From the NCBI RefSeq assembly GCF_030296015.1, contig NZ_AP027368.1:930001-994000 (forward strand): a DNA stretch of 64,000 bases, in the 5' to 3' direction. The position numbers were made by a program, and so were the translations under genes. This stretch comes from Ferrimonas sp. YFM. Its GTDB lineage: Bacteria; Pseudomonadota; Gammaproteobacteria; Enterobacterales; Shewanellaceae. The notes under the pieces were generated by a model. The model was given only the letters and a program-made list of their open reading frames with translations, did no database searches and was not told where the DNA came from. Shown piece after piece: positions 11,691 through 22,037 of the stretch. Each line of letters begins with the position of its first letter. The first letter of the stretch is position 1.

Positions 11691-12982
11691 GGTTCTTCGC
11701 ACATTAGCGGGAACTAGATACGAAAACGGCTGGAAAGGTTATTGTTTAGTCGCCAAACACAAACAATCACCACCAGCCGTTCTCGATGCAAAAGCTTACC
11801 TTGCCTATCTCACCGTGGGAAGGGTTTTCCCCCACTCATACTGAGCTCCACCACGATACTCTTACCATCCATTTAACCCCCTCGGGCCCCGGTCAATGTC
11901 GCTGTGGCCAAGCTGTCAGTCGGGTTCACGATGTCACTATCCGCACTATTCAGGAGCGTGATGTTTTTGGCTACCAGACTTTGCTGTCTGTACCACTGCG
12001 CCGACTACGCTGCCCTGACTGTGGTGTGGTCACTGAGTGCCTTTCCTGGCTGGAGCCCCATGCTCGCCAGACCAACCGACTTATCCTGTACGTCGAACAA
12101 CTGCTAAAGCGGATGCCCATTAAGCACGTTAATGAGATGACCGGTTTGCACTGGCACACCCTCAAGCGGCTGGACATACAGCGTCTGACTCGGGAGGTCA
12201 CCGAGCCGGACTGGAGCAAGGTACGACGTCTGGTCATGGACGAGTTTGCCCTGTTCAAGGGCCACCGCTACGCCACTGTCATCGCCGATGCCGACACTCA
12301 CCAGGTGCTGTGGGTTGGCGAGGGCCGTAGTCGAGAGGCGATACGACCGTTCTTCCTGACGTTGGGAGAGCACTGCCAGCATATCGAAGCGGTAGCCATG
12401 GACATGAATACCGCCTTCGACCTAGAAGTGGCGATGCATTGCCCCAATGCCGCAGTGGTCTACGACCTTTTCCATGTGGTGGCCAAATATGGCCGGGAAG
12501 TGGTGGATCGGGTGCGAGTGGACCGAGCCAACGAGCTGAGGCAGGACAAACCGGCCAGAAGAAGAGTAAAGCGAGGTCGGTGGGTGCTGCTGAAGAACCG
12601 GAAGAACATGACCGACAAGCAGCACGCCTACTTGGAGGAACTGTTAGCTGAGAACCGGTCGCTGATGGTGGTGTACCTGATGCGGGAACAACTGAAGGAG
12701 CTGTGGTATGCCGACAGTCCCGATGCTGCTCTGAGCCAGTGGCGTTTATGGTGGCAACAGGTCACCGAGAGCGGCATCGAACCGCTTATCCGCTTCGCTA
12801 AGAAGCTCAAACCCTACCTCAATGGCATCATCGCCTCGGCTACCTTCCGGCTGCACACCTGCAAGCTTGAGGGAATGAACAACAAGATAAAGGTTATCAA
12901 GCGCATGGCCTACGGATACCGGGACAGCGACTACTTCTTCCTGAAGATACGAGCCGCTTTTCCCGGTAATGCGCGATGAACC
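11691..12982 (+). mobile_element. Complete ISL3-family insertion sequence (1292 bp)
   Basis: The ends are inverted repeats of about 23 bases with roughly three mismatches: the left begins GGTTCTTCGCACATTAG and the reverse complement of the right begins GGTTCATCGCGCATTAC. An 8-bp ACAAAAAA duplication flanks it. It contains one intact transposase gene filling nearly the whole element. It is inserted in the A/T tract of the terminator that originally separated the convergent P-type ATPase and ssrA. Intact gene, ends and duplication suggest a recent, possibly active copy. Confidence 0.95.
11786..12979 (+). CDS. ISL3-family transposase
   Basis: A 397-residue DDE transposase. The N-terminal zinc-binding region has paired cysteines (QCRCG at 37-41 and RCPDCG at 75-80), followed by a helix-turn-helix-like segment (about residues 105-130). 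Catalytic residues are read as D152 (LVMDEFALFKGHRYATVIAD), D206 (VAMDMNTAF) and E362 (CKLEGMNNKIK); these fit the ISL3 pattern in which a MDEF block opens the catalytic core. Full length, no frameshift. The stop lies three bases before the right end of the element. Confidence 0.95.
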   Translation: MQKLTLPISPWEGFSPTHTELHHDTLTIHLTPSGPGQCRCGQAVSRVHDVTIRTIQERDVFGYQTLLSVPLRRLRCPDCGVVTECLSWLEPHARQTNRLILYVEQLLKRMPIKHVNEMTGLHWHTLKRLDIQRLTREVTEPDWSKVRRLVMDEFALFKGHRYATVIADADTHQVLWVGEGRSREAIRPFFLTLGEHCQHIEAVAMDMNTAFDLEVAMHCPNAAVVYDLFHVVAKYGREVVDRVRVDRANELRQDKPARRRVKRGRWVLLKNRKNMTDKQHAYLEELLAENRSLMVVYLMREQLKELWYADSPDAALSQWRLWWQQVTESGIEPLIRFAKKLKPYLNGIIASATFRLHTCKLEGMNNKIKVIKRMAYGYRDSDYFFLKIRAAFPGNAR

Positions 12983-12990
12983 ACAAAAAA
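12983..12990. repeat. Right copy of the 8-bp target duplication of the ISL3-family element
   Basis: ACAAAAAA, identical to 11683-11690, immediately outside the right inverted repeat. Confidence 0.93.
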
Positions 12991-13012
12991 GCCCACCTTG
13001 CGGTGGGCTTTT
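12985..13012. terminator. Ancestral bidirectional terminator between ATPase gene and ssrA
   Basis: GCCCACC TTGC GGTGGGC with A-rich sequence on the left and TTTT on the right, able to work in both directions. Read on the minus strand it directly follows the duplicated ssrA 3' end at 13005-13044, so it is probably the original ssrA terminator, now displaced 8 kb from the functional ssrA. Confidence 0.8.
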
Positions 13013-13044
13013 AATGATGTTTGGTGGAGTCGGGGGGAGTTGAA
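13005..13044. repeat. Distal att repeat (remnant ssrA 3' end)
   Basis: A 40-bp sequence identical to 21103-21142. It includes the tmRNA T-arm/acceptor end on the minus strand (starts TGGTGGAGTCGGGGGGAGTT at 13022) but diverges immediately after GTTGAA, so it is a tail fragment and not a gene. Confidence 0.93.
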
Positions 13045-13096
13045 AACCGTCGTTCACCATCGCTGCGCCGCGGTGTCACGTACTGTGTCTATCAAG

Positions 13097-13116
13097 TGAA
13101 CTACCAATCGAACTAC
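13097..13116 (+). repeat. Paired GAACTAC repeats near distal att, possible integrase arm sites
   Basis: GAACTAC occurs at 13098-13104 and 13110-13116, and its reverse complement GTAGTTC at 20917-20923 just upstream of the integrase gene. Spacing of 12 bases and placement inside both ends of the element resemble arm-type binding sites of tyrosine integrases. This is suggestive only. Confidence 0.3.
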
Positions 13117-13138
13117 TAAAATAAAACATCGCTAGAAA

Positions 13139-13164
13139 CAAAAAGGCACCCGATGTGGGTGCCT
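13139..13164 (-). terminator. Intrinsic terminator after the 59-residue gene
   Basis: On the minus strand AGGCACCC pairs with GGGTGCCT across a short loop, followed by TTTTTG. It lies about 25 bases beyond the stop of the small gene at 13187 and is the only clear terminator at that end of the island. Confidence 0.75.
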
Positions 13165-13186
13165 GTTCCGCATAGAGTGCTCGATA

Positions 13187-13366
13187 TCAGCAGCAAGCTA
13201 CCTTTGGGTGTTGCTTGCGAGAGCCTAGAGCAACTTTTTGGTTTAGCTCAAGGGAAGGAGAGGTCCATGCGGCTTTTGTTTGGATAAGGAATTGAACAGC
13301 CTTGGTGCTACGCTCGCTAACGGCTGTAACGCTCATCTTGTCCGTGGTTACACGTTTCCGACTCAT
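13187..13366 (-). CDS. Small island protein of unknown function (59 aa)
   Basis: An ATG at 13366 preceded by AGGAG with a six-base spacer, followed by 59 codons and a terminator, which together argue for a real small gene. The product begins MSRKRVTTDKMSVTAVSE and is basic and hydrophilic, with two C-terminal cysteines (VACC). I recognise no family. It is the last gene of the island before the distal att repeat, a usual position for cargo. Confidence 0.5.
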   Translation of the reverse strand: MSRKRVTTDKMSVTAVSERSTKAVQFLIQTKAAWTSPSLELNQKVALGSRKQHPKVACC

Positions 13367-13563
13367 AGGTGTCTCCTGTCTAACTGCGAACATTTCCATT
13401 TGCTCAACAAAACCACCATGTCACAAAAGGTTACGGATGTAAATCTTGCTGTTGCCAGTGCAAATGTTACTAATGGTAAATCAAGTAGTAACTCACTCTA
13501 GGCAACCATTCATGGCTGAGCGACGAAGTATACACTTGCTTATATTGTAGTCAAGGTTCTGGA

Positions 13564-14154
13564 TTAAGTTTGTGATTCTAGCCGCATAACGGTATTGACT
13601 CTGTCTTCCAAGGCCTGCACTGATACAGACATGCTGAGAATGATTGCACCATCTTCGTTGGGAAGCCAAGAGAATCCGAATTTCTCGTAGTGTGCTACGA
13701 GCTTTGGCTCATTTGGATCTACATCATGGAGACGTATAACTTGGGCTCCAGCTGCTTGAGTGATGAGGTAGGCTCCCATAAACGTAACGTTACACACACG
13801 TTTATAGAAGGGACTGGTGCTGTCACAGAAGGATTCCAACATTCGGAGCTCTATGGTTTCATCTTCTGGGATGAAACGACCTAAGCAGGCGGCTTGCAGC
13901 GAACCGTCTATCAGCAGTTTGAATGTTAGATCGAATGCACCATCTTGATTGTATGTTGTGCAGAGCTCATGATCCCAGTTCAAGTCACTGTAGTCACTTG
14001 CCAGAGTGGAGTATATGTCTTCATCAATGCCCCCAATCTCCAACTGGTGATCGGGAAATATCTCATCGCAAACATACTGGAAGTCTGCGTAGAATCGGGC
14101 TTTAATTTGCTGAAAATCCAACTCGCTGCCTCTCCACATAAAGGAAGCGTACAT
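13564..14154 (-). CDS. Hypothetical protein with GNAT-like C-terminus
   Basis: A 196-residue soluble acidic protein. Residues about 152-161 (LVAHYEKFGF) followed by a beta-type stretch resemble the last motif of GNAT acetyltransferases (YEKLGF), and TFMGAYLITQAAGAQVIRLH could be the preceding helix and strand. The acetyl-CoA pyrophosphate loop is not evident, so this may be a degenerate or atypical member. It lies 220 bases downstream of the KAP NTPase gene, same strand, in the cargo half of the island. The start has only a weak ribosome site. Function is not established. Confidence 0.6.
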   Translation of the reverse strand: MYASFMWRGSELDFQQIKARFYADFQYVCDEIFPDHQLEIGGIDEDIYSTLASDYSDLNWDHELCTTYNQDGAFDLTFKLLIDGSLQAACLGRFIPEDETIELRMLESFCDSTSPFYKRVCNVTFMGAYLITQAAGAQVIRLHDVDPNEPKLVAHYEKFGFSWLPNEDGAIILSMSVSVQALEDRVNTVMRLESQT

Positions 14155-14374
14155 TTTAATGTCACTTTCAAGGGTTTAGCAATTGTGATGAAGGATTTTT
14201 TGTTGTACCCAAGTTGGTTGTGCGTTCTGGCTTTGATAATGATTCGTAATCACCTTAAGGTGTGAACCTTTGAAAGCAGTGTGTCTAGTTTTGGGGGAGG
14301 TGTTAAGTTTGTGTTGAGCATAGAGTGCTCCACCAGAGTCTCGATGGAGCCATTTGAGTTGCTTACCCTGAGCT

Positions 14375-15955
14375 TCATACACCTTCTAGGGCGTTCCCCA
14401 CATCTACCAGTTTGAAGTAGTCTCTGATCACCACTCTCTTTATAGAAGCTTCATCTAAATTGCTCATTTCTACAATGAATGGGCTTAAGAAAGGATTAGC
14501 TTGGGACTCGTTGTTGTCACCTATCTGTTCATTCCGCTCAATAGTCGCTTCTGCAACAAGATGGTCGATGCTAGTTGTGCTCATAAGCCCATTAGGCCCG
14601 TATCTTTCGATGTGGTTGTCTAATCGCTGAGCCTTTGGCCCATGACTGATGTAAGGCAAAAAGCCTTCGATTTTCGAGAAGACACTACTATCTTGATCAG
14701 TGGACAGGGAGAGGCGTCCGATTTTCAGGGATTCGTATAGGTCTGCGTGACTAACGCTTAAGCAAAGTAAAAATATTAGTGTTGGCCCATGAATTAGCCC
14801 TGGATTCTGTTCCATGATGAACTCCAGCCGCAGAGCTACCTGGTGTATATCTCTAAGCTCTAAGCCGGTATAGCCCCCGATAACTGAAGCAAAGCTGACT
14901 AATTTCTCATCTCGTGGCCATATCCGACCTCTGCCAAAGTGAGGGTTTTTAGACCAGTCAACTCGGGAGTTTAAAAACGCTGTTGTGCTAGGTTTGGGCA
15001 GCATGAATCTACTGTTGAAGAATCTACCGAGATACCTTCCTCCATCAAAGCTTTCTCCGTAGACACCGCTTATTGCGTGTCGGAGCTGAGAAGAGTCTGT
15101 GGCGACGACAAATGCTGCCTCAGGGATATAGAACATGTGCTTGATTAGCTCAAGCAGCTCGATAGCATACGAAGGGCGGCAACGATCGAGTTCGTCTATG
15201 AAGATAAATACCTTCTGGGAGCCGCAGTATGGGGACTTTTCCTCCTCCATGATCATCTGCATCAGTTGTGAAAGTGATGTTCGAAACGACTGGATATGGG
15301 CTTTATCTTTTTCAAATCGATCAATGAGGCCTTTGGTTGCAAGCATAGCCATGTGCTCAATTAGTTTTGTATCTGATTCTTCGCGGTTGTTATCCAGATC
15401 TCTTTTTGGAGGAGCTTCAGATAGCTTTTGCGATAGAGCCTCCTCGTCTTCATTTGAGTGGATAGCCGCTTCCCAGTCGAATCCAATAGCTTTCCTTACC
15501 GCTGCTCGGACCATTTCTGGAGCGGCCTTTTTCATGAAAGAGCCTGTCGCTTCGAGCCAGCTTCTGGACTTCTGGTCGAATCCCTCTATGTGGGGCTTTA
15601 GCTGAGTACTGATCTGTGCAACGCAGGCCAGTAGTGGGTCGTCTGCAAAATCAGTCTCCCAAGCATCAATGTATATTGCCAAAATGGGCTGGCTTCCCTG
15701 TATCCAGTCCGGAACTGAAAGCGAATTCTGCCAGCACTTTAAGAAGAATGTTTTTCCTGCTCCCCACGGTGCATTTATGTTGAGCGCGTACCCATTGGGT
15801 TGAGACAATAAGTGCTTAGTCAGACTTAGTGCATACGCTTCTCTCCCCCCCAAAAGATCATCGTTCCAAGTTGGATTTGCGGAGTTTGCGTCGAGAATGG
15901 TCATCATACTGATTGGTCTCGGATTGGGATTTTTCGATGTTAGGTATGAAACCAT
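14375..15955 (-). CDS. KAP-family P-loop NTPase
   Basis: A 526-residue NTPase. Walker A is NAPWGAGKTFF (about 61-71) and Walker B is KVFIFIDELDRCRPSYAIEL (about 248-267), the signature of KAP P-loop proteins, followed by the typical VVATDSSQLRHAI sensor region. No membrane segments are evident, unlike many KAP proteins, so it is probably cytoplasmic. Known members include PifA of plasmid F, which excludes phage T7, and KAP-type ATPases occur in several defence loci; a defence role here is inference. No ribosome site is obvious at the first ATG or at the Met-Met 16-17 codons later, so the start is uncertain. It sits among AT-rich island cargo. Confidence 0.85.
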   Translation of the reverse strand: MVSYLTSKNPNPRPISMMTILDANSANPTWNDDLLGGREAYALSLTKHLLSQPNGYALNINAPWGAGKTFFLKCWQNSLSVPDWIQGSQPILAIYIDAWETDFADDPLLACVAQISTQLKPHIEGFDQKSRSWLEATGSFMKKAAPEMVRAAVRKAIGFDWEAAIHSNEDEEALSQKLSEAPPKRDLDNNREESDTKLIEHMAMLATKGLIDRFEKDKAHIQSFRTSLSQLMQMIMEEEKSPYCGSQKVFIFIDELDRCRPSYAIELLELIKHMFYIPEAAFVVATDSSQLRHAISGVYGESFDGGRYLGRFFNSRFMLPKPSTTAFLNSRVDWSKNPHFGRGRIWPRDEKLVSFASVIGGYTGLELRDIHQVALRLEFIMEQNPGLIHGPTLIFLLCLSVSHADLYESLKIGRLSLSTDQDSSVFSKIEGFLPYISHGPKAQRLDNHIERYGPNGLMSTTSIDHLVAEATIERNEQIGDNNESQANPFLSPFIVEMSNLDEASIKRVVIRDYFKLVDVGNALEGV

Positions 15956-16494
15956 ACAAGAGTTAGTGGATTTTGATGTGGATCATCCGGTTTCTCTAAA
16001 ATCCACAGTATTTCAGGTGATTATAGAACTGAAAGAGCTTTGGGGTGCAACTTGAAGGTGCATCTGCTGCACTTCCATGAAATGAAAACTGGGCACAAAA
16101 ATCTGAGTAACAACCTTATTGTGTTTGAAAATTGCTCACATTTTGTTGACGGTTTTTTAATAGGGGGGTACCCCCTCTTCAGTTGCACCCTCCCCCTCCC
16201 CCTCTTTGAAATCGATCAGAGTTCTTAAGAGAACAGCCTAATGGTGAAGCTATTAGTCGTGTAGATGTTCCGGGGAGTACTTCTAGGGTGGCCATTTGGG
16301 AGGGGCGTAACTGATGAGTTGGTGATAATGATGAGATTTTTATAGTTATTCCTATGCAGAGAACAAGTGATGTATACATGAGCGAATGTTGATGGCTTTA
16401 CTGTTTAAGGGGATGAGGGTTGTATGGATGATGAGGAAACTGTTGCGTTGCAACCGCGGTCTAGTGAGGAGGTGCAACGCAACACAGGGTCGCT
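15956..16494. other. Symmetry-rich intergenic region of the island (possible origin or control region)
   Basis: A 540-base gap with no convincing gene. It contains several symmetric elements: GGGTGCAACT at 16043-16052 and its exact inverse at 16181-16190, the palindrome GGGGGTACCCCC at 16164-16175 next to a C-rich tract, GTTCTTAAGAGAAC at 16221-16234, and an 11-base inverted repeat at 16442-16483 that again contains TGCAAC. The repeated GGTGCAAC/GTTGCACC motif beside a helicase gene would suit a replication origin or operator; this is inference. Confidence 0.4.
16442..16483. repeat. 11-bp perfect inverted repeat downstream of helicase gene
   Basis: GTTGCGTTGCA at 16442-16452 and TGCAACGCAAC at 16473-16483 with a 20-base loop. 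It lies 12 bases beyond the helicase stop. There is no T-run on the minus strand, so it is not a normal terminator. Confidence 0.6.
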
Positions 16495-18009
16495 TTAGCT
16501 TATTTGGTTTAGTGAGAGGTAGTTGTCTTTAACGACTATCCCGTCCTCTTTGCCTACCGCATTGAACAAGCGACTTGTTCGGCTTCTCAGGGTGCCGTCT
16601 TTGATGTTGGGTTCAGAGCGACGAACCATGTCTTTAAACTCGTCCTTAGCGTAGGGAACTGAGATGGGTTCTGAACAGCCTCTTAGGTATCGAACGAGCC
16701 AATCTTTGTCACTCTGAGAGGTCACCCTCTGGCCATCTTGCGCCTGTTCCCAGGCATCCCCTGAGTGTTGAATGACTCCAACATCAATGCTGGTGTTATT
16801 GGCCAGTTTGACCTTTAAACTGGCAATAGGAGCGGCTGACGGAGCTCGGAGAGGAATGTCTTTTAGCTTTGACGGCCAGACAAATGGGATTGTGCTCTCA
16901 TCATTGCCCTCCGCTGACTGGGCCTTTGCCATGACTACACCTAGAACGACCTCAGCTCCTGCTTTTAGATTCCCTGAGCCCCGCAAGATCATGTCCGCAT
17001 CACACCCTGGCTTAATGGGGTTTTCATCACTTCCCTTTCGACTGTGGTGAATGCACAACACAGTGGCACCGGATAGGTCCCTTAACTGACGCATCCAGGC
17101 TATCGCGAGTTCGGTATCGCTACTGTCGTTCTCTCTCGAAGCACCGCTGTATGCTCTGAAGGTGTCGAAAAGGATCAGACGACACTTCTCCCCAGTAACC
17201 TCGGACTGTTTTCTCACAGCATCAGCTATAAGCTCTGGCGGCGTCGTTTTAAAACTGATGCATGTATTGCACTGCCACACCCTTTGCTCCCAGATAGCCT
17301 TATCAACCTCATGATATTGTCGGTAGGCTTCGAGACGCTTTCCGATGCCTTGAGTTCCCTCGACTGTGAAGTAGGCTGCGGCTCCGGCTTCTCCTATAAT
17401 TTCGCCAACACCACAAAACGGAATACCAGTGGCAATGGCTCCGATCATGTCGATGGCCACGAAAGTCTTACCATTGGCTGATGGTCCAGAGATAAAACCA
17501 ATAGCTTTACCAGGGACCCAGCTGTGTATAAGCCATTCGTATGGCTGTTCCCATTCACCAGAACCCATGCTCCAGCTCAATGCAGAGGTATATTGATGTT
17601 CTCCCCGTTGGATACGGAGCAAAGCGTCTGTGTCTCCGTTGAGTGCTTTTTGTAGGTCCTGGTTAAGGTTACGTTTCTTTGCATAGTCTTCGATTACTCG
17701 AGCGTACTGATCAACGTTTGAAATTCCTGGCGTGTTTCTGGAAAGATCTGACGCATAGGCGAGAAGGCCTGTAGTACGAATTCCATGCCGATTTATCTCT
17801 TCGTTGAGAGTTACTAGGTCAGGAGCAATACCCTTAGCTGACAGCTTCAGAATTAAGCTAACCAGTTTCTTGTGTTCAGCCTTATGGAACGGCTCCATTC
17901 CAAGGCGCTGGATATGAGGAAGGGCGTGAGCCCTCCCTCCTTCCAAAAACGCCGCCCCGATTAGACTTTGTTCTGCCAACTCGGAGTATTCTGACGTTTT
18001 ATTGCCCAT
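16495..18009 (-). CDS. Replicative helicase: DnaB N-terminal-like domain plus RepA-type ATPase
   Basis: A 504-residue protein. The N-terminus (about residues 8-125) resembles the DnaB N-terminal domain (ELAEQSLIGAAFL, DLVTLNEEINRHG). The centre is a RecA-like ATPase of the RSF1010-RepA/AAA_25 kind: Walker A ISGPSANGKTF (about 173-183), Walker B CRLILFDTFRAYSG (about 276-289) and VLCIHHSRKG (about 317-326). The C-terminal ~100 residues look like a winged-helix DNA-binding region. It probably unwinds or loads replication machinery at an element origin. Its ATG follows the upstream gene stop by one base, so it belongs to an alpA-led operon. Confidence 0.82.
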   Translation of the reverse strand: MGNKTSEYSELAEQSLIGAAFLEGGRAHALPHIQRLGMEPFHKAEHKKLVSLILKLSAKGIAPDLVTLNEEINRHGIRTTGLLAYASDLSRNTPGISNVDQYARVIEDYAKKRNLNQDLQKALNGDTDALLRIQRGEHQYTSALSWSMGSGEWEQPYEWLIHSWVPGKAIGFISGPSANGKTFVAIDMIGAIATGIPFCGVGEIIGEAGAAAYFTVEGTQGIGKRLEAYRQYHEVDKAIWEQRVWQCNTCISFKTTPPELIADAVRKQSEVTGEKCRLILFDTFRAYSGASRENDSSDTELAIAWMRQLRDLSGATVLCIHHSRKGSDENPIKPGCDADMILRGSGNLKAGAEVVLGVVMAKAQSAEGNDESTIPFVWPSKLKDIPLRAPSAAPIASLKVKLANNTSIDVGVIQHSGDAWEQAQDGQRVTSQSDKDWLVRYLRGCSEPISVPYAKDEFKDMVRRSEPNIKDGTLRSRTSRLFNAVGKEDGIVVKDNYLSLNQIS

Positions 18010-18010
18010 G

Positions 18011-18355
18011 TTAATCCTGGTAGCTGTTGACGTAATCTAGGATGAGCTTTTGCTTGACCTCAATGGGGAGAGGGCAGGCGAAGCGCTGAGCTCTGAGTTG
18101 GTCAAGGTGCTGCAGACACTTGATAAAATCGAGTAGGCTGATCGGCTTATATTCTCGGCCTCGGGTAAGGGTGACTCCAATGTCACGAGCTCGTTGTCGA
18201 TAATATCCGGGGCTGGTGGTTTTCAGGCGACCAACAATTTGCCACCGAGATACCCCTTCACTGTCACAGGTGACAAGCATCTCGAAAAAGCGCTCAGTCT
18301 TCGTTTGGCGGTCGTTATGGTTGCCGATAAAGTCGAGAATTAGTGCTGTTTTCAT
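18011..18355 (-). CDS. Small island protein of unknown function (114 aa) between alpA and helicase
   Basis: The ATG at 18355 has AAGGGGG at good spacing, ten bases after the alpA stop; an in-frame upstream extension overlaps alpA and is rejected. The 114-residue product starts MKTALILDFIGNHNDRQTK and is soluble and basic. The middle (GVSRWQIVGRLKTTSPGYYR) could be a winged-helix or helix-turn-helix, so a DNA-binding accessory for replication or regulation is possible. No family is recognised with certainty. Confidence 0.65.
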   Translation of the reverse strand: MKTALILDFIGNHNDRQTKTERFFEMLVTCDSEGVSRWQIVGRLKTTSPGYYRQRARDIGVTLTRGREYKPISLLDFIKCLQHLDQLRAQRFACPLPIEVKQKLILDYVNSYQD

Positions 18356-18365
18356 AGTTGCCCCC

Positions 18366-18554
18366 TTAGGCCTTGTTGTTGGAGAGTTCGGATAGCCATT
18401 TCTGGATAGATGATTCTTTCCAGTAGTTGCGCCCTCCGATTCGAACTGGTTCGGGAAACTCACCTTTGCGACGCATAAGATAGATGCGGGTTCTAGAGAA
18501 GGGGACAACTCCGAGAAGTTGTGGGCCACTGATTAGGCGGTCTCTGTCTGTCAT
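18366..18554 (-). CDS. alpA: AlpA-family transcriptional regulator/excisionase
   Basis: A 62-residue DNA-binding protein with the MerR-like helix-turn-helix of the AlpA family: LISGPQLLGVVPFSRTRIYL, then RRKGEFPEPVRIGGRNYWKESSI. AlpA proteins of P4-like and other integrative elements activate integrase expression or promote excision. AAAGGAAAG lies upstream of the ATG. It is the first gene of the operon alpA-orf114-helicase and lies just below a pair of overlapping inverted repeats that could be its operator. Confidence 0.9.
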   Translation of the reverse strand: MTDRDRLISGPQLLGVVPFSRTRIYLMRRKGEFPEPVRIGGRNYWKESSIQKWLSELSNNKA

Positions 18555-18582
18555 AGGCTTTCCTTTGGGTAAAGGTGTCTCA

Positions 18583-18613
18583 GGGTGATTTAGTTATCAC
18601 CCATCAACGTGGG
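18583..18613. promoter_or_regulatory. Overlapping inverted repeats upstream of alpA, candidate operator
   Basis: GGGTGAT at 18583-18589 and ATCACCC at 18596-18602 form a perfect 7-bp dyad with a six-base centre. A second dyad, ACCCA/TGGGT, overlaps it (about 18599-18614). They lie 29-60 bases upstream of the alpA start codon, where a repressor of the alpA-helicase operon would bind. Inference from position and symmetry. Confidence 0.45.
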
Positions 18614-18699
18614 TTGGTATCTATGAACAGATTTTGTCGTGAATTAGCGAGTGCAGCAGTAGAACTGTCGAGGCAGGAAAATACGGGAAAATCTTGAAT

Positions 18700-19626
18700 C
18701 TAAAATTCTACAGATTTTGTTGTAATGTCGTGGCTGAGGCGCAGGATCGTTCCGTCAGTAGCCAAAGAGTTGATAAAGGGCAGTATGGTCTGCCGCACTC
18801 TTTCGGCACTAGCCCATGGGTCATTGTCCGAGAATGCTGCCCTGTTTAGCACCTCACTGCTGACTTTGAACTTTTTAAAGGTTGCCCAGCTAAGAATGTC
18901 CATTATCAGAAACACGTTATAACGATGGATTTTGTCGAAGATGGCCGGGCCGTGGTTTTTAAAGCCCGATGGTGGCCATTGATCCCGGCTTTCCTCTGGA
19001 CACTCGTACTCTTGTCGCAACTTAGGCAGCTGCTGCTTTAAGTCGGCCAAAATGGCCACATCAGAGCATTCATCAAGATTGAGGCATATTGGGACCCGTG
19101 TTGCCAACGGGTCAGCTTCAGCAAATTTGGAAACCGACACCATCGAGCAGTCATTTTCGAGATCTTCATTAAATTGAAGATCAATGCCATTACGCCCAAG
19201 ATCCATCATATTGACCTCCGGATCTGGGATGTATAGCTTACCGTTATGAAATTTCATGTAACCTAGGGCAATAGCGTCGTTAGCTAGGCTGCACAGTTCA
19301 GCGAGATTTAACGAGATAGCGCAGGTCTCATTGTCCTCTTCTCCGTTCTCGTCGATGGCGGCCAGCATATCCTGCGTTGATAGTACTGGCGAGCCGGACC
19401 AGATCTTCTCGAGGTTTCGCATGTGCAGAGACTGGCCACTGCCACCTTCACTGCCGAGTACAGGCATTCTCTGGCTATCCACGAACTCGCGAATGTCGAG
19501 CCGCCTGGTAAGTTCCTGAAGCAGGTGTTCAGGTGCCATGCCCTCAAAAACGCGGTAAACAGAGCGGTTTGCCCATAAGGGGAGGTCAGATTTGGTGCGG
19601 ATCTGTATTTTAATCTTGGAGCTCAT
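18700..19626 (-). CDS. Integrase-coupled hypothetical protein (DUF6387-like)
   Basis: A 308-residue soluble protein beginning MSSKIKIQIRTKSDLPLWAN; the KSDLPLWA opening and overall size resemble the DUF6387 proteins often found beside integrases, but I could not confirm this by alignment. It starts inside the integrase stop (ATGA overlap, 19623-19626), so it is translated with the integrase. No catalytic motif is seen. Tight coupling suggests a role in integration, excision or control of the element. Confidence 0.6.
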   Translation of the reverse strand: MSSKIKIQIRTKSDLPLWANRSVYRVFEGMAPEHLLQELTRRLDIREFVDSQRMPVLGSEGGSGQSLHMRNLEKIWSGSPVLSTQDMLAAIDENGEEDNETCAISLNLAELCSLANDAIALGYMKFHNGKLYIPDPEVNMMDLGRNGIDLQFNEDLENDCSMVSVSKFAEADPLATRVPICLNLDECSDVAILADLKQQLPKLRQEYECPEESRDQWPPSGFKNHGPAIFDKIHRYNVFLIMDILSWATFKKFKVSSEVLNRAAFSDNDPWASAERVRQTILPFINSLATDGTILRLSHDITTKSVEF

Positions 19627-20900
19627 GCTGTCTCGGCACCTTCATGGTTTTGTTCATCGCCTGGAATAACGCTGATAGTGGTGCAATTGGTGGCTGGCTT
19701 TTGGCCCAGCGAGGCTTGAGCAATCTGGTTGCTCCACCACTCCATCATGGGGCGTCGTCGTTCGACATACTGTGCCCTGTTGTATGCTGCTCGTACTTCG
19801 TTGCGGTCGGCATGGGCAAGAGCTGACTCGATGAGGTCTGGCGGAAAACCGGCTTCGTTGAGCGTGGTAGATGCGAGAGCACGGAGCCCGTGTGAAACCA
19901 GCTTTCCACTGAATCCTGCGCGTTTAAGGGCGGCATTAGCGGTCTGGGAGCAAGCAGGACGAGAGGGCACACGGTCTCCAGGGAAAAGGTGTTCTCGTTC
20001 CCCGGAAATACCCTTGAGCTCTTCAAGTAAGCTGAGTGCGTGGGAGGAAAGAGCTACCCAATGCTCCTTCTTTCGTTTCATTCGCGATGCTGGAATGCGC
20101 CAGGTACGACTCTCCATGTCTATCTCTTTCCAATGCGCCCCCGCAGCTTCACTGGGGCGGACCATGGTATGGAGTTGCCATTCGATTAGCAGGCGAGTAG
20201 TGGGTCGAGTATTCATCCGCTGCAGGCGCTTCATGAGCATGGGTAACTCATCGGGGCGCAAGGTCGGAAGGTTGTCTTTGGTCGGTGCCTTAAAGGCTGC
20301 GCGGATACCAGACATAGGGTTGGCATGAACAACGCCGGTGTTGACCGCATGCCTCATGATTTCGTTCAGTCTTTGAATGACGCGTTTTACCTGTTCTAAG
20401 GAGCCTTTTGCTTCCAGTGGACGCAGGCATTCAATTGCCATTGGAGCGGTCAGTTGTTTGATTGGTATTGTTCCCAGCTTGGGGAACAGGTGCATCTCTA
20501 ATGAGCGGCGGATGTCCTCCGCGTAGTCAGCAGAGACCTTGGATTGTTTTACAAGCATCCAGTCTTTTGCGACTGCCTCAAGAGTTGTCATTACATCCAC
20601 ATTTTTCTGCAGTTGCTGCTGCTCTCTGTGGGCTTTCGGGTCAACGCCTTTCGCCAGCAATGCCTTTGCAGCTCTTTTGGCTTCTCGGGCGTCGGCCAGA
20701 CCAACCTCTGGAAAGGCTCCGAGCCCTAAGCTGGTGCGTTTTTTATCCGTTGGTCTGTAGTAGTCCAGAAACCAGTGCTTACTGCCATTAGGTTTGACTT
20801 TGAGCTGAAGGCCATTGCCATCATTGAGGCGGTACATGGCCGCTTTGGGCTTGGCTCCCCGTACCTGGGTATCTGTAAGCGGCTTTACGATACGTGGCAT
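19623..20900 (-). CDS. int: Tyrosine integrase, P4/DUF4102 type
   Basis: A 425-residue site-specific recombinase. The N-terminal arm-binding domain (PLTDTQVRGAKPKAAMYRL, GLQLKVKPNGSKHW, SLGLGAFPEVGLADAR) is of the DUF4102 kind. The catalytic core gives R248 (MVRPSEAAGAHW), H337-x-x-R340 (SHGLRALAST), H363 (LAHAD) and nucleophile Y373 (AAYNRAQYVERRRP). AGGAGG precedes the ATG. The gene lies about 200 bases from the proximal att repeat at the ssrA 3' end, the usual place for an integrase using tmRNA as its attachment site. It appears intact. Confidence 0.95.
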   Translation of the reverse strand: MPRIVKPLTDTQVRGAKPKAAMYRLNDGNGLQLKVKPNGSKHWFLDYYRPTDKKRTSLGLGAFPEVGLADAREAKRAAKALLAKGVDPKAHREQQQLQKNVDVMTTLEAVAKDWMLVKQSKVSADYAEDIRRSLEMHLFPKLGTIPIKQLTAPMAIECLRPLEAKGSLEQVKRVIQRLNEIMRHAVNTGVVHANPMSGIRAAFKAPTKDNLPTLRPDELPMLMKRLQRMNTRPTTRLLIEWQLHTMVRPSEAAGAHWKEIDMESRTWRIPASRMKRKKEHWVALSSHALSLLEELKGISGEREHLFPGDRVPSRPACSQTANAALKRAGFSGKLVSHGLRALASTTLNEAGFPPDLIESALAHADRNEVRAAYNRAQYVERRRPMMEWWSNQIAQASLGQKPATNCTTISVIPGDEQNHEGAETA

Positions 20901-21084
20901 GATTCCCTCCTGCGTAGTAGTTCAACAATGGGGTTGCTGCAGCTGCTGACTACTATCTGTACTACTACGAAGGGTGAACAGGCAAGAACAAAATAAAACG
21001 CCCTTGAACTGGATCATGAAAATATTTGTTCAAAAACAGTGGTTTGGGGTACTCTGTGAAGTCGGTCAAACGGAATTTGGACAT

Positions 21085-21106
21085 AAAAAAACCCGCAAAA
21101 GCGGGC
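21085..21106 (-). terminator. Current ssrA terminator, supplied at the island end
   Basis: On the minus strand GCCCGC TTTT GCGGG followed by seven T, starting about 14 bases past the tmRNA 3' end. It differs from the ancestral terminator at 12985-13012 in stem and loop, so part of it was brought by the island. Confidence 0.85.
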
Positions 21107-21142
21107 TTTTAATGATGTTTGGTGGAGTCGGGGGGAGTTGAA
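21103..21142. repeat. Proximal att repeat inside the ssrA 3' end
   Basis: A 40-bp copy identical to 13005-13044. Bases 21120-21142 are the last 23 bases of tmRNA including CCA, so integration leaves an intact tmRNA gene. Confidence 0.93.
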
Positions 21143-21482
21143 CCCCCGTCCGAAAAACCTACATCCTCGGTCCTACATGCTTAGCCGGCTCTTTTAGTTA
21201 ACCCATAGTGGCGCCGAGCGGCAGGCTTCACCTGGGCGATCCAGATTGAGTTTAACGCTTTGTCTACTGGAGAAGACGCCGCGCGATCCTATATGGCTTG
21301 ACTACCTTGATCCTCTCCCAATAGGCGGGGGATTGGAGGTAGGCGATCTTACCGCTTATTAGGCGGCGATTGCGTAAGTTTCGTCGTTTGCGACTATTAA
21401 AATGCGGCTTTTTTACGAGGCCAACCGCACCTCGGCATGCACCTTGGGTTTCGAGAATCCCGTCGAATCCAAAATCGACCCC
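21120..21482 (-). ncRNA. ssrA: Transfer-messenger RNA (tmRNA)
   Basis: A 363-nt tmRNA that rescues stalled ribosomes together with SmpB. The 5' end (GGGGTCGATTTTGGATTCGA) and 3' end (GACTCCACCA) form the tRNA-like domain with a T-arm GGGGGTTCAACTCCCCC. The tag reading frame is at 21362-21391 on the minus strand followed by TAATAA; with the charged alanine it gives AANDETYAIAA. The 3' end is the attachment site of the adjacent island. Transcribed towards the island, with smpB just upstream on the same strand. Confidence 0.98.
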
Positions 21483-21492
21483 AGGTAGAGCT

Positions 21493-21522
21493 ACTATACC
21501 ACTTATCCACAGAGGACGCCAA
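21493..21522 (-). promoter_or_regulatory. ssrA promoter
   Basis: On the minus strand TTGGCG (21517-21522), an 18-base spacer and TATAGT (21493-21498), ending about ten bases before the mature tmRNA 5' end. Confidence 0.65.
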
Positions 21523-21537
21523 GGCCAGTGTGGATAA
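21503..21537. promoter_or_regulatory. Two inverted DnaA-box sequences in the ssrA promoter region
   Basis: TTATCCACA at 21503-21511 and its exact inverse TGTGGATAA at 21529-21537. Both match the DnaA box consensus TTATNCACA and flank the -35 element of ssrA, between ssrA and smpB. Functional binding is not shown; the dyad could serve another regulator. Confidence 0.45.
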
Positions 21538-21548
21538 GCATTAAGCGA

Positions 21549-22037
21549 TCAGCGCTTGGAACCCTTCATGACCCGGGCTTTTTCACGGTCCCAGTCACGC
21601 TGTTTGGCATCATCGCGCTTGTCGTGTTGTTTCTTACCCTTACCCAGACCGAACTCCAGCTTCACCCAGGCCTTCTTCCAATAGAGGGCGGTGGGGATCA
21701 TGCTGTAGCCCTGACGCTCCACCTGACCAATGAGGCGGTCCAACTCCCGGCGCTTAAGCAGCAGTTTGCGCAGACGCAGGGGATCGGCCACCACGTGGGT
21801 GGAGGCGGTGTTAAGGGGAGTAATGGTGACGCCGTGAAGGTAGGCTTCGCCATCTTTAATTTGAATAAAGCCTTCGGTGAGGTTTACCTTGCCTTCGCGA
21901 AGGGATTTCACTTCCCATCCCATCAGGGACAGACCTGCCTCAATCTTCTCCTCGATGTGATACTCGTGGCGCGCCTTCTTATTGAGGGCGATGGTCGAGG
22001 AGGTGGGCTTGGATTTTTTAGAACTTTTCTTAGCCAT
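21549..22037 (-). CDS. smpB: tmRNA-binding protein SmpB
   Basis: A 162-residue OB-fold protein that binds the tRNA-like part of tmRNA and places it in the ribosomal A site. Family sequence is clear: [34 protein letters not shown] and the basic C-terminal tail ending [15 protein letters not shown]. It lies directly upstream of ssrA on the same strand, the common arrangement. The lysine-rich N-terminus ([10 protein letters not shown]) is normal. Confidence 0.98.

What the first reader, a model, noticed from the sequence alone, without database searches (positions are those of the whole stretch)
13564..15955. Island cargo pair: soluble KAP-type NTPase plus GNAT-like protein, candidate undescribed defence module
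The KAP NTPase has complete Walker A and B motifs but no membrane segments. It is followed on the same strand by a protein with an acetyltransferase-like C-terminus, in the AT-rich cargo half of a small ssrA island. KAP NTPases include the T7-exclusion protein PifA and ATPases in other anti-phage loci; the pairing with a GNAT-like protein is not one I recognise.
Basis: inference. Interest (0 to 1): 0.65.

Follow-up and report, generated by a model that had tools for sequence, protein, structure and literature searches.

The report
Satellite island with two separate cargos
A small phage-satellite-like island carries a lone ATPase gene of a suspected anti-phage family and, next to it, what is probably an unrelated two-gene prophage cargo unit (an acetyltransferase-shaped protein plus a tiny protein), so the proposed ATPase-acetyltransferase pair is probably not a real module.

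Summary
In detail: window 13564-15955 carries a soluble KAP NTPase and a 196-aa protein with a confidently predicted GNAT fold (Z 13.7), in an 8.1-kb ssrA island bounded by perfect 40-bp repeats. The proposed pairing does not hold: 0 of 87 KAP-homologue loci hold the 196-aa family and 0 of 85 the reverse, with distant homologues only. Two separate cargo units fit better. (1) KAP matches PADLOC candidate PDC-S20; at 21 of 87 loci its homologues lie between cI and int, a position reported as a defence hotspot in Vibrionaceae P2-related phages. (2) The 196-aa protein belongs to phrog_4350, which has a same-strand small gene (phrog_2741 where tested) downstream at 84 of 85 loci. This unit sits at prophage cargo sites, including the P2 gpA-gpQ hotspot; in E. 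coli the small gene can instead follow a Panacea-type pair. The canonical acetyl-CoA motif is present in 0 of 19 members. Island layout resembles PICMI satellites. Function untested.

The parts
13005..13044 (.). distal attachment repeat, perfect copy of the 40 bp at the ssrA 3' end
   Evidence: direct repeat D1, 100% over 40 nt
13144..13164 (-). terminator-like hairpin after the small ORF
   Evidence: 4 such sites found in the region, 3.5 expected by chance
13187..13366 (-). 59-aa small protein, probable divergent relative of phrog_2741; candidate partner of the GNAT-fold gene
   Evidence: top score of 705 window ORFs, 23-27 of 20,000 shuffles reach it; same slot and strand as in 84 of 85 relatives; no direct PHROGs or Pfam match
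13527..13554 (-). promoter-like TTGACT-16-TATACT between the GNAT-fold gene and the small gene
   Evidence: 4 promoter-like sites found, 5.0 expected; 27 of 300 shuffles reach 10/12, so weak
13564..14154 (-). GNAT-fold protein, 196 aa, phrog_4350 family, without canonical acetyl-CoA motif
14375..15955 (-). soluble KAP P-loop NTPase, 526 aa, PADLOC PDC-S20 / phrog_8614
   Evidence: start codon not certain (weak upstream ribosome site)
16495..18009 (-). DnaB N-terminal + AAA_25 replicative helicase of the island
18366..18554 (-). AlpA-type regulator/excisionase
   Evidence: PF05930 7.9e-07
18700..19626 (-). DUF6387 protein overlapping int by 4 nt (ATGA), in the position of PICMI iolg
19623..20900 (-). 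tyrosine integrase
21103..21142 (.). attachment repeat overlapping the ssrA 3' end

Best explanation
The two genes are separate cargo units of a small satellite-like island and do not form one system. Unit 1 is a stand-alone KAP NTPase of the PDC-S20 family. By analogy with its nearest solved fold, RdrA, it probably assembles into an ATP-driven oligomer that stops infection by other phages; sensing and effect are inferred. Unit 2 is a two-gene prophage cargo unit: a GNAT-fold protein (13564-14154) plus a roughly 57-aa protein encoded just downstream (13187-13366). Shown in relatives: linkage, purifying selection on the small gene, and recurrent placement at phage cargo sites. Inferred: that the window small ORF is a true member; that the GNAT-fold protein is the effector, acting on a host or phage component with an atypical or lost acyl-CoA site; and that the small protein, which in relatives ends in a ClpXP-type tail, is its short-lived controller, so that infection releases the effector.
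For: No co-occurrence: 0 of 87 KAP loci hold the 196-aa family and 0 of 85 the reverse; also 0 KAP in 80 phrog_2741 loci and 0 phrog_2741 in 87 KAP loci. Small gene downstream on the same strand at 84 of 85 loci, 17 of 18 clusters at 90% identity. Small-gene dN/dS 0.04-0.14 in 14 of 15 pairs of six related lambdoid copies. Distance matrices of the two proteins correlate, r 0.94, 0 of 5000 permutations as high. Window small ORF best of 705 ORFs, 23-27 of 20,000 shuffles as high. Sites: P2 portal downstream at 9 and gpA upstream at 8 of 85, Q antiterminator upstream at 11 of 85; PMC9122126 places the P2 hotspot between gpA and gpQ. KAP between cI and int at 21 of 87 loci, with no room for another gene at 16 (Pfam check of four loci); PMC9122126 reports a cI-int hotspot in Vibrionaceae P2-related phages. 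RdrA Z 18.1, rmsd 5.3, 321 aligned. QatA, another KAP NTPase, was reported heptameric or octameric (PMC13279940, passages). ClpXP C-motifs: PMC9775585.
Against: All homologues are distant (window GNAT-fold protein about 31% at most; KAP local matches up to 43% over 105 residues), so a pairing peculiar to close relatives cannot be excluded. Flanks were short at many loci: both sides at least 3 kb at 50 of 87 and 29 of 85. The window small ORF was missed by the first profile, was not significant with the second, has no direct PHROGs or Pfam match and ends ACC, not AA as in the 17 relatives compared. In E. coli the small gene also occurs without the GNAT-fold gene, so a dedicated-controller role is not the only reading. 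39 KAP loci do have a same-strand neighbour within 40 nt. For QatA, mutation or deletion did not cause full susceptibility (PMC13279940), so a KAP protein need not be the essential part. No activity was measured.
Confidence: 0.65

Rival explanations
1. One reading: KAP NTPase and GNAT-fold protein are sensor and effector of one undescribed defence module.
For: Adjacent, same strand, same cargo region; both families lie in mobile cargo.
Against: No co-occurrence in 87 + 85 loci; 220-nt gap; each family has its own arrangement.
Confidence: 0.1
2. The GNAT-fold gene plus small gene is a toxin-antitoxin pair: a GNAT-fold toxin held by a labile antitoxin of about 57 aa.
For: Tight linkage; the GNAT toxins TacT3 and KacT are among the fold matches; tails of the 17 relatives compared resemble ClpXP C-motifs; in E. 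coli and viral contigs the alternative occupant of the slot is a Panacea-type pair.
Against: Acetyl-CoA motif Q/RxxGxG/A present in 0 of 19 members. The small gene is downstream, 76-285 nt behind counted from the first possible start codon (L020: -25), and has no Pfam domain. It also accompanies Panacea, which is itself an antitoxin domain (PMC8832971, passages). No ribbon-helix-helix ORF upstream in the window or in four relatives tested.
Confidence: 0.35
3. The GNAT-fold unit is a lysogenic-conversion or lysis/late-stage modulator of the phage, not defence.
For: At 11 of 85 loci a Q antiterminator lies upstream, and a holin of one family lies downstream at 10.
Against: It also sits at the P2 gpA-gpQ site, at a prophage end, and in an island in which no lysis gene was seen among the proteins scanned.
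Confidence: 0.25

Closest known systems
PADLOC PDC-S20 / phrog_8614 KAP NTPases
   Same: Core match 4.6e-81 over residues 24-418 and 5.1e-63 over 29-430; prophage cargo
   Different: C-terminal ~100 residues not covered by the models; candidate family, and no paper in the library holds the name PDC-S20
RdrA of RADAR
   Same: Best fold match, Z 18.1, 321 aligned, rmsd 5.3
   Different: 13% identity; no deaminase among the island proteins scanned
QatA and PifA
   Same: KAP core matches at 7.8e-16 (QatA) and 9.3e-16 (PifA)
   Different: QatA score 57.9 against cut-off 600; only part of either profile covered; no qat partner among the four island proteins scanned with PADLOC
phrog_4350 + phrog_2741 prophage gene pair (e.g. 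mEp460_023/024)
   Same: Same family, gene order and strand; start of the small gene 198 nt behind the GNAT-fold gene in the window and 197 in mEp460
   Different: Window proteins are divergent: about 31% at most for the GNAT-fold protein; small protein 16-31% in a multiple alignment and 2-33% in pairwise ones
PICMI satellites (PMC10803314, passages)
   Same: int, 4-nt ATGA-overlapping gene, alpA, replication gene, cargo next to the distal site
   Different: DnaB/AAA_25 helicase in place of the DUF3987/DUF5906 primase; ssrA in place of fis; 8.1 kb against 6.1 kb for PICMI115

Membership tests
KAP NTPase (PF07693) | KAP P-loop domain with Walker A and B | tested here: met
   8.3e-33, 114 bits against cut-off 20; motif residues invariant in 64 aligned sequences
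QatA | NCBIfam NF041923 cut-off 600 bits | tested here: not met
   57.9 bits
RADAR | RdrA plus RdrB adenosine deaminase | tested here: not met
   no deaminase among the island proteins scanned
PADLOC PDC-S20 | match to the PDC-S20 models | tested here: met
   4 models hit, best 4.6e-81; PADLOC's own cut-offs not shown
PADLOC PDC-S20 | anti-phage activity | not testable with these tools
   needs plaque assays; no paper in the library holds the name
GNAT superfamily | GNAT fold | tested here: met
   VIA Z 13.7, rmsd 3.1, 163 aligned to PA3270
GNAT superfamily | acetyl-CoA motif Q/RxxGxG/A | tested here: not met
   present in 0 of 19 aligned members; the motif is recalled, not from a call
phrog_4350 | profile match | tested here: met
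   1.2e-20 over 13-163
phrog_2741 (window small ORF) | profile match | tested here: inconclusive
   no PHROGs match; no hit at E 10 with a first custom profile; rank 14 of 2706 with a second; score 5.2 with a third, 23-27 of 20,000 shuffles as high
GNAT toxin-antitoxin (TacAT type) | ribbon-helix-helix antitoxin upstream (recalled) | tested here: not met
   no Pfam match in the 68-aa ORF 14176-14382 upstream, nor such a domain in six ORFs upstream of four relatives; downstream partner candidate has no Pfam domain
PICMI | integrase and AlpA | tested here: met
   PF00589 and PF05930
PICMI | primase PF13148/PF19263 | tested here: not met
   PF00772 and PF13481 instead; model as given in PMC10803314
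PICMI | insertion beside fis | tested here: not met
   inserted at ssrA
PICMI | packaging by a helper phage | not testable with these tools
   needs induction and transduction

The most novel reading that the evidence does not exclude
phrog_4350 (GNAT fold without the acetyl-CoA motif) plus phrog_2741 (about 57 aa, degron-like tail) is an undescribed mobile anti-phage unit whose small protein is an interchangeable part that can work with either a GNAT-fold effector or a Panacea-type pair; the window carries a far-diverged copy in a PICMI-like satellite.
Probability: 0.3. Interest if true: 0.7.

Novelty: new variant of a known kind. Interest (0 to 1): 0.45.

Why it matters
It replaces a tempting but unsupported pairing with a testable one. 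The two-gene unit is common: DNA matches to the mEp460 copy occur in 559 of 5426 E. coli genomes, 358 of them covering at least 80% of the two-gene query, and in the 25 rows listed the genes are annotated as hypothetical proteins. A small protein shared by two unrelated upstream partners in the same prophage slot would make modular assembly of prophage-encoded immunity or toxin units directly testable. The solitary placement of KAP homologues at 16 of 87 loci predicts that it works as a single gene.

Tried and rejected
KAP-GNAT module: rejected on co-occurrence.

Close homologues: P196 (the 196-aa protein) alone gave none in viral contigs. In genome contigs it gave one hit, L029, rejected because it falls in a 704-aa ORF that I read as a TonB-dependent receptor (the label is my reading, untested). 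KAP alone gave none in viral contigs. Order-level search: 5 of 295 genomes including the window's own hold P196, the weakest at E 1e-3; class-level search: 1 of 369, the own genome only. Annotated records: P196 in 3 phage and 5 plasmid records, KAP in 31 plasmid and 5 phage records. The island helicase matched 1 of 152 family genomes and 2 of 394 order genomes, own included, and no viral contig, so cargo exchange on the same backbone could not be shown.

RNA element between the GNAT-fold gene and the small gene: window z 0.21, L018 -0.43, L097 -0.77, L002 -2.44, L081 -3.29; not consistent, dropped. Rfam finds only tmRNA in 12900-21600. A promoter-like site follows the stop codon in the window, but in 10 of 13 relatives the best site is reached by at least 73 of 300 shuffles. 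A 13-nt repeat after KAP and after the small ORF (D14) is within chance for this length by my estimate. The 128-aa partner of Panacea and the small protein have no convincing solved relative, nor does KAP by sequence. By sequence the P196 profile has only weak GNAT hits (E 0.1; 0.48). A LuxI-like resemblance was considered from memory and not pursued.

Literature: no paper in the library holds PDC-S20 or the six family and protein identifiers searched; this does not show that the pair is unpublished under other names.

Dropped before counts: L162 in the KAP neighbour count, because its KAP ORF was lost in ORF selection.

Full report
OBSERVATION. The two ORFs are as described. They lie in an island bounded by perfect 40-bp direct repeats, 13005-13044 and 21103-21142; the second overlaps the 3' end of ssrA, 21120-21482. 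The ISL3 transposase at 11786-12979 lies outside. The DUF6387 gene starts inside the end of the integrase gene with a 4-nt ATGA overlap. The host was not identified.

KAP PROTEIN. Pfam KAP_NTPase 8.3e-33; PADLOC PDC-S20 4.6e-81, PifA 9.3e-16 and QatA 5.1e-14; phrog_8614 5.1e-63. NCBIfam QatA scores 57.9 against a cut-off of 600. Highest Kyte-Doolittle 19-mer is 1.48; 16 of 87 homologues reach 1.6, so lack of a hydrophobic segment is common but not universal. The AlphaFold2 model has mean pLDDT 75, with blocks of the core above 90 and residues 417-458 below 50. Nearest solved fold is RdrA of RADAR, best chain Z 18.1, rmsd 5.3, 321 aligned; the first matches outside RdrA are ORC2 (Z 14.2) and BrxC (Z 13.9). 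QatA, a KAP NTPase, was reported to form heptamers or octamers and to bind DNA, yet its loss did not cause full susceptibility (PMC13279940, passages read).

KAP NEIGHBOURS. 87 homologue loci were compared: the best 80 of 318 confirmed viral-contig matches plus 7 genome loci. 21 of 87 have cI upstream and int downstream; at 16 of these the gaps (cI at most 46 nt, int at most 123 nt) leave no room for another gene. cI and int were confirmed by Pfam in the four loci tested, L127, L166, L177 and L183. In the neighbour count 86 of 87 loci could be read (L162 was lost): 172 neighbours, of which an integrase family accounts for 22, an opposite-strand family of about 421 aa for 21 and cI for 16. Two members of the opposite-strand family were tested: L157 matches the gpD tail hub (3.3e-09), L116 has no Pfam match. 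Small upstream families of 70 aa and 53 aa occur at 6 and 5 loci and a 161-aa one at 3; the one 161-aa member tested, L127, has a BRCT domain. 39 loci have a same-strand neighbour within 40 nt. No constant partner emerged. PMC9122126 (passages read) reports a defence hotspot between cI and the integrase of P2-related phages in Vibrionaceae; the hosts of my 21 loci were not identified.

GNAT-FOLD PROTEIN. No Pfam match, phrog_4350 1.2e-20. The model from 19 sequences has pLDDT 85 and pTM 0.79. Foldseek finds 220 chains at E <= 0.001; the 50 shown are mainly acetyltransferases, with several isocitrate lyase 2 chains and an uncharacterised protein at the top. VIA-align gives Z 13.7 to PA3270, rmsd 3.1, 163 aligned. 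The viral library also lists mainly acetyltransferase-like proteins at weak TM-scores. The acetyl-CoA motif is present in 0 of 19; most relatives have HPLxGRM-like loops where the window has SPFYKRV.

ITS PARTNER. 85 loci of this family (80 viral contigs, mEp460, four genome loci) fall into 18 clusters at 90% identity; 36 loci belong to one cluster. A profile built from five downstream small ORFs finds a same-strand small ORF just downstream at 84 of 85 loci, 17 of 18 clusters; only L021, the lowest-scoring member, lacks it. The Morganella plasmid homologue L003 also lacks a match. Small proteins from five loci were scanned against PHROGs and all five match phrog_2741. dN/dS is 0.04-0.14 in 14 of 15 pairs of six related copies, some with saturated dS. 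The two proteins' distance matrices correlate at 0.94, 0 of 5000 permutations as high; shared descent alone gives such a correlation, so this shows joint inheritance, not contact. The 17 relatives compared all end in AA; PMC9775585 (one table passage read) lists xAA endings and MuA RRKKAI among ClpXP C-terminal motifs.

WINDOW SMALL ORF. It starts 198 nt behind the GNAT-fold gene; the same measure in mEp460 is 197. With the first profile it was not found at E 10. With a redundancy-heavy second profile it ranked 14 of 2706 targets including 2000 shuffles. With a third profile, from eight diverse relatives, it is the top of 705 window ORFs (next best 3.2 against 4.8-5.2 bits), and 27, 23 and 27 of 20,000 shuffles reach its score under three alignments. 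Pairwise identity to 17 relatives is 2-33%, at most 4% for seven of them. I therefore call it a probable, not a proven, homologue. It ends ACC.

LOCATIONS. Of 85 loci, 9 have the P2 portal and terminase downstream and 8 of these gpA upstream; 11 have a Q antiterminator upstream; 10 have a holin of one family downstream; 3 a tape measure gene downstream. In the E. coli example H44 the pair lies directly behind a truncated tRNA-dihydrouridine synthase gene at the prophage end, and in H69 between a replication endonuclease and a portal gene. PMC9122126 places the P2 hotspot between gpA and gpQ. In E. coli, 559 of 5426 genomes match the mEp460 pair and 358 cover at least 80%; the P2-type copy is in 11 of 5426. 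Both partial-match records opened carry, before the same small gene, a Panacea-domain protein and a 128-aa protein; Pfam PF13274 1.8e-18 in the one tested. Among the 80 best of 116 viral-contig matches to the small protein, 51 have the GNAT-fold gene, 28 the 128-aa protein (14 with Panacea visible) and 1 neither. The antitoxin role of Panacea is from PMC8832971 (passages read).

CO-OCCURRENCE. KAP profile in 85 GNAT-family loci: 0. GNAT-family profile in 87 KAP loci: 0 at E 10. KAP in 80 phrog_2741 loci: 0; phrog_2741 in 87 KAP loci: 0; KAP in 8 further loci: 0. Limits: distant homologues only, and both flanks at least 3 kb at 50 of 87 and 29 of 85.

ISLAND. The layout int - ATGA-overlapping gene - alpA - replication gene - cargo - distal site matches PICMI satellites (PMC10803314, passages read), whose UP2 cargo between prim and fis confers immunity to some phages. 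The primase signature and the fis site are not met, so I do not file it as a PICMI; it may work like one.

MECHANISM. Shown: anatomy, predicted folds, linkage, placement. Inferred: KAP as an ATP-driven single-gene exclusion protein; GNAT-fold protein as effector, small protein as unstable controller. I put anti-phage function at about 0.55 for KAP and 0.45 for the second unit, and a strict toxin-antitoxin mechanism at 0.35; these are judgements, not computed.

Noticed in passing
13005-21142: Whole island has PICMI-like gene order, including a DUF6387 gene overlapping int by ATGA; a DnaB-N/AAA_25 helicase replaces the PICMI primase and ssrA replaces fis.
   Followed up: partly
L194 2983-4184 and L195 2986-4187: Panacea protein, 128-aa protein and phrog_2741 small gene occupy the prophage slot that in other E. 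coli holds the GNAT-fold gene and the small gene.
   Followed up: partly
L127 4121-4606: A BRCT-domain protein lies immediately upstream of KAP between cI and int; L147 and L169 have a relative of it in the same place (only L127 tested with Pfam).
   Followed up: no
11786-12979: ISL3-family transposase on the plus strand ends about 25 nt from the distal attachment repeat, outside the island.
   Followed up: no
L003 1-466: A 3-kb Morganella plasmid carries an unannotated 131-aa ORF related to the GNAT-fold protein, near the start of the circular record (it may run across it), without a recognisable small partner.
   Followed up: no
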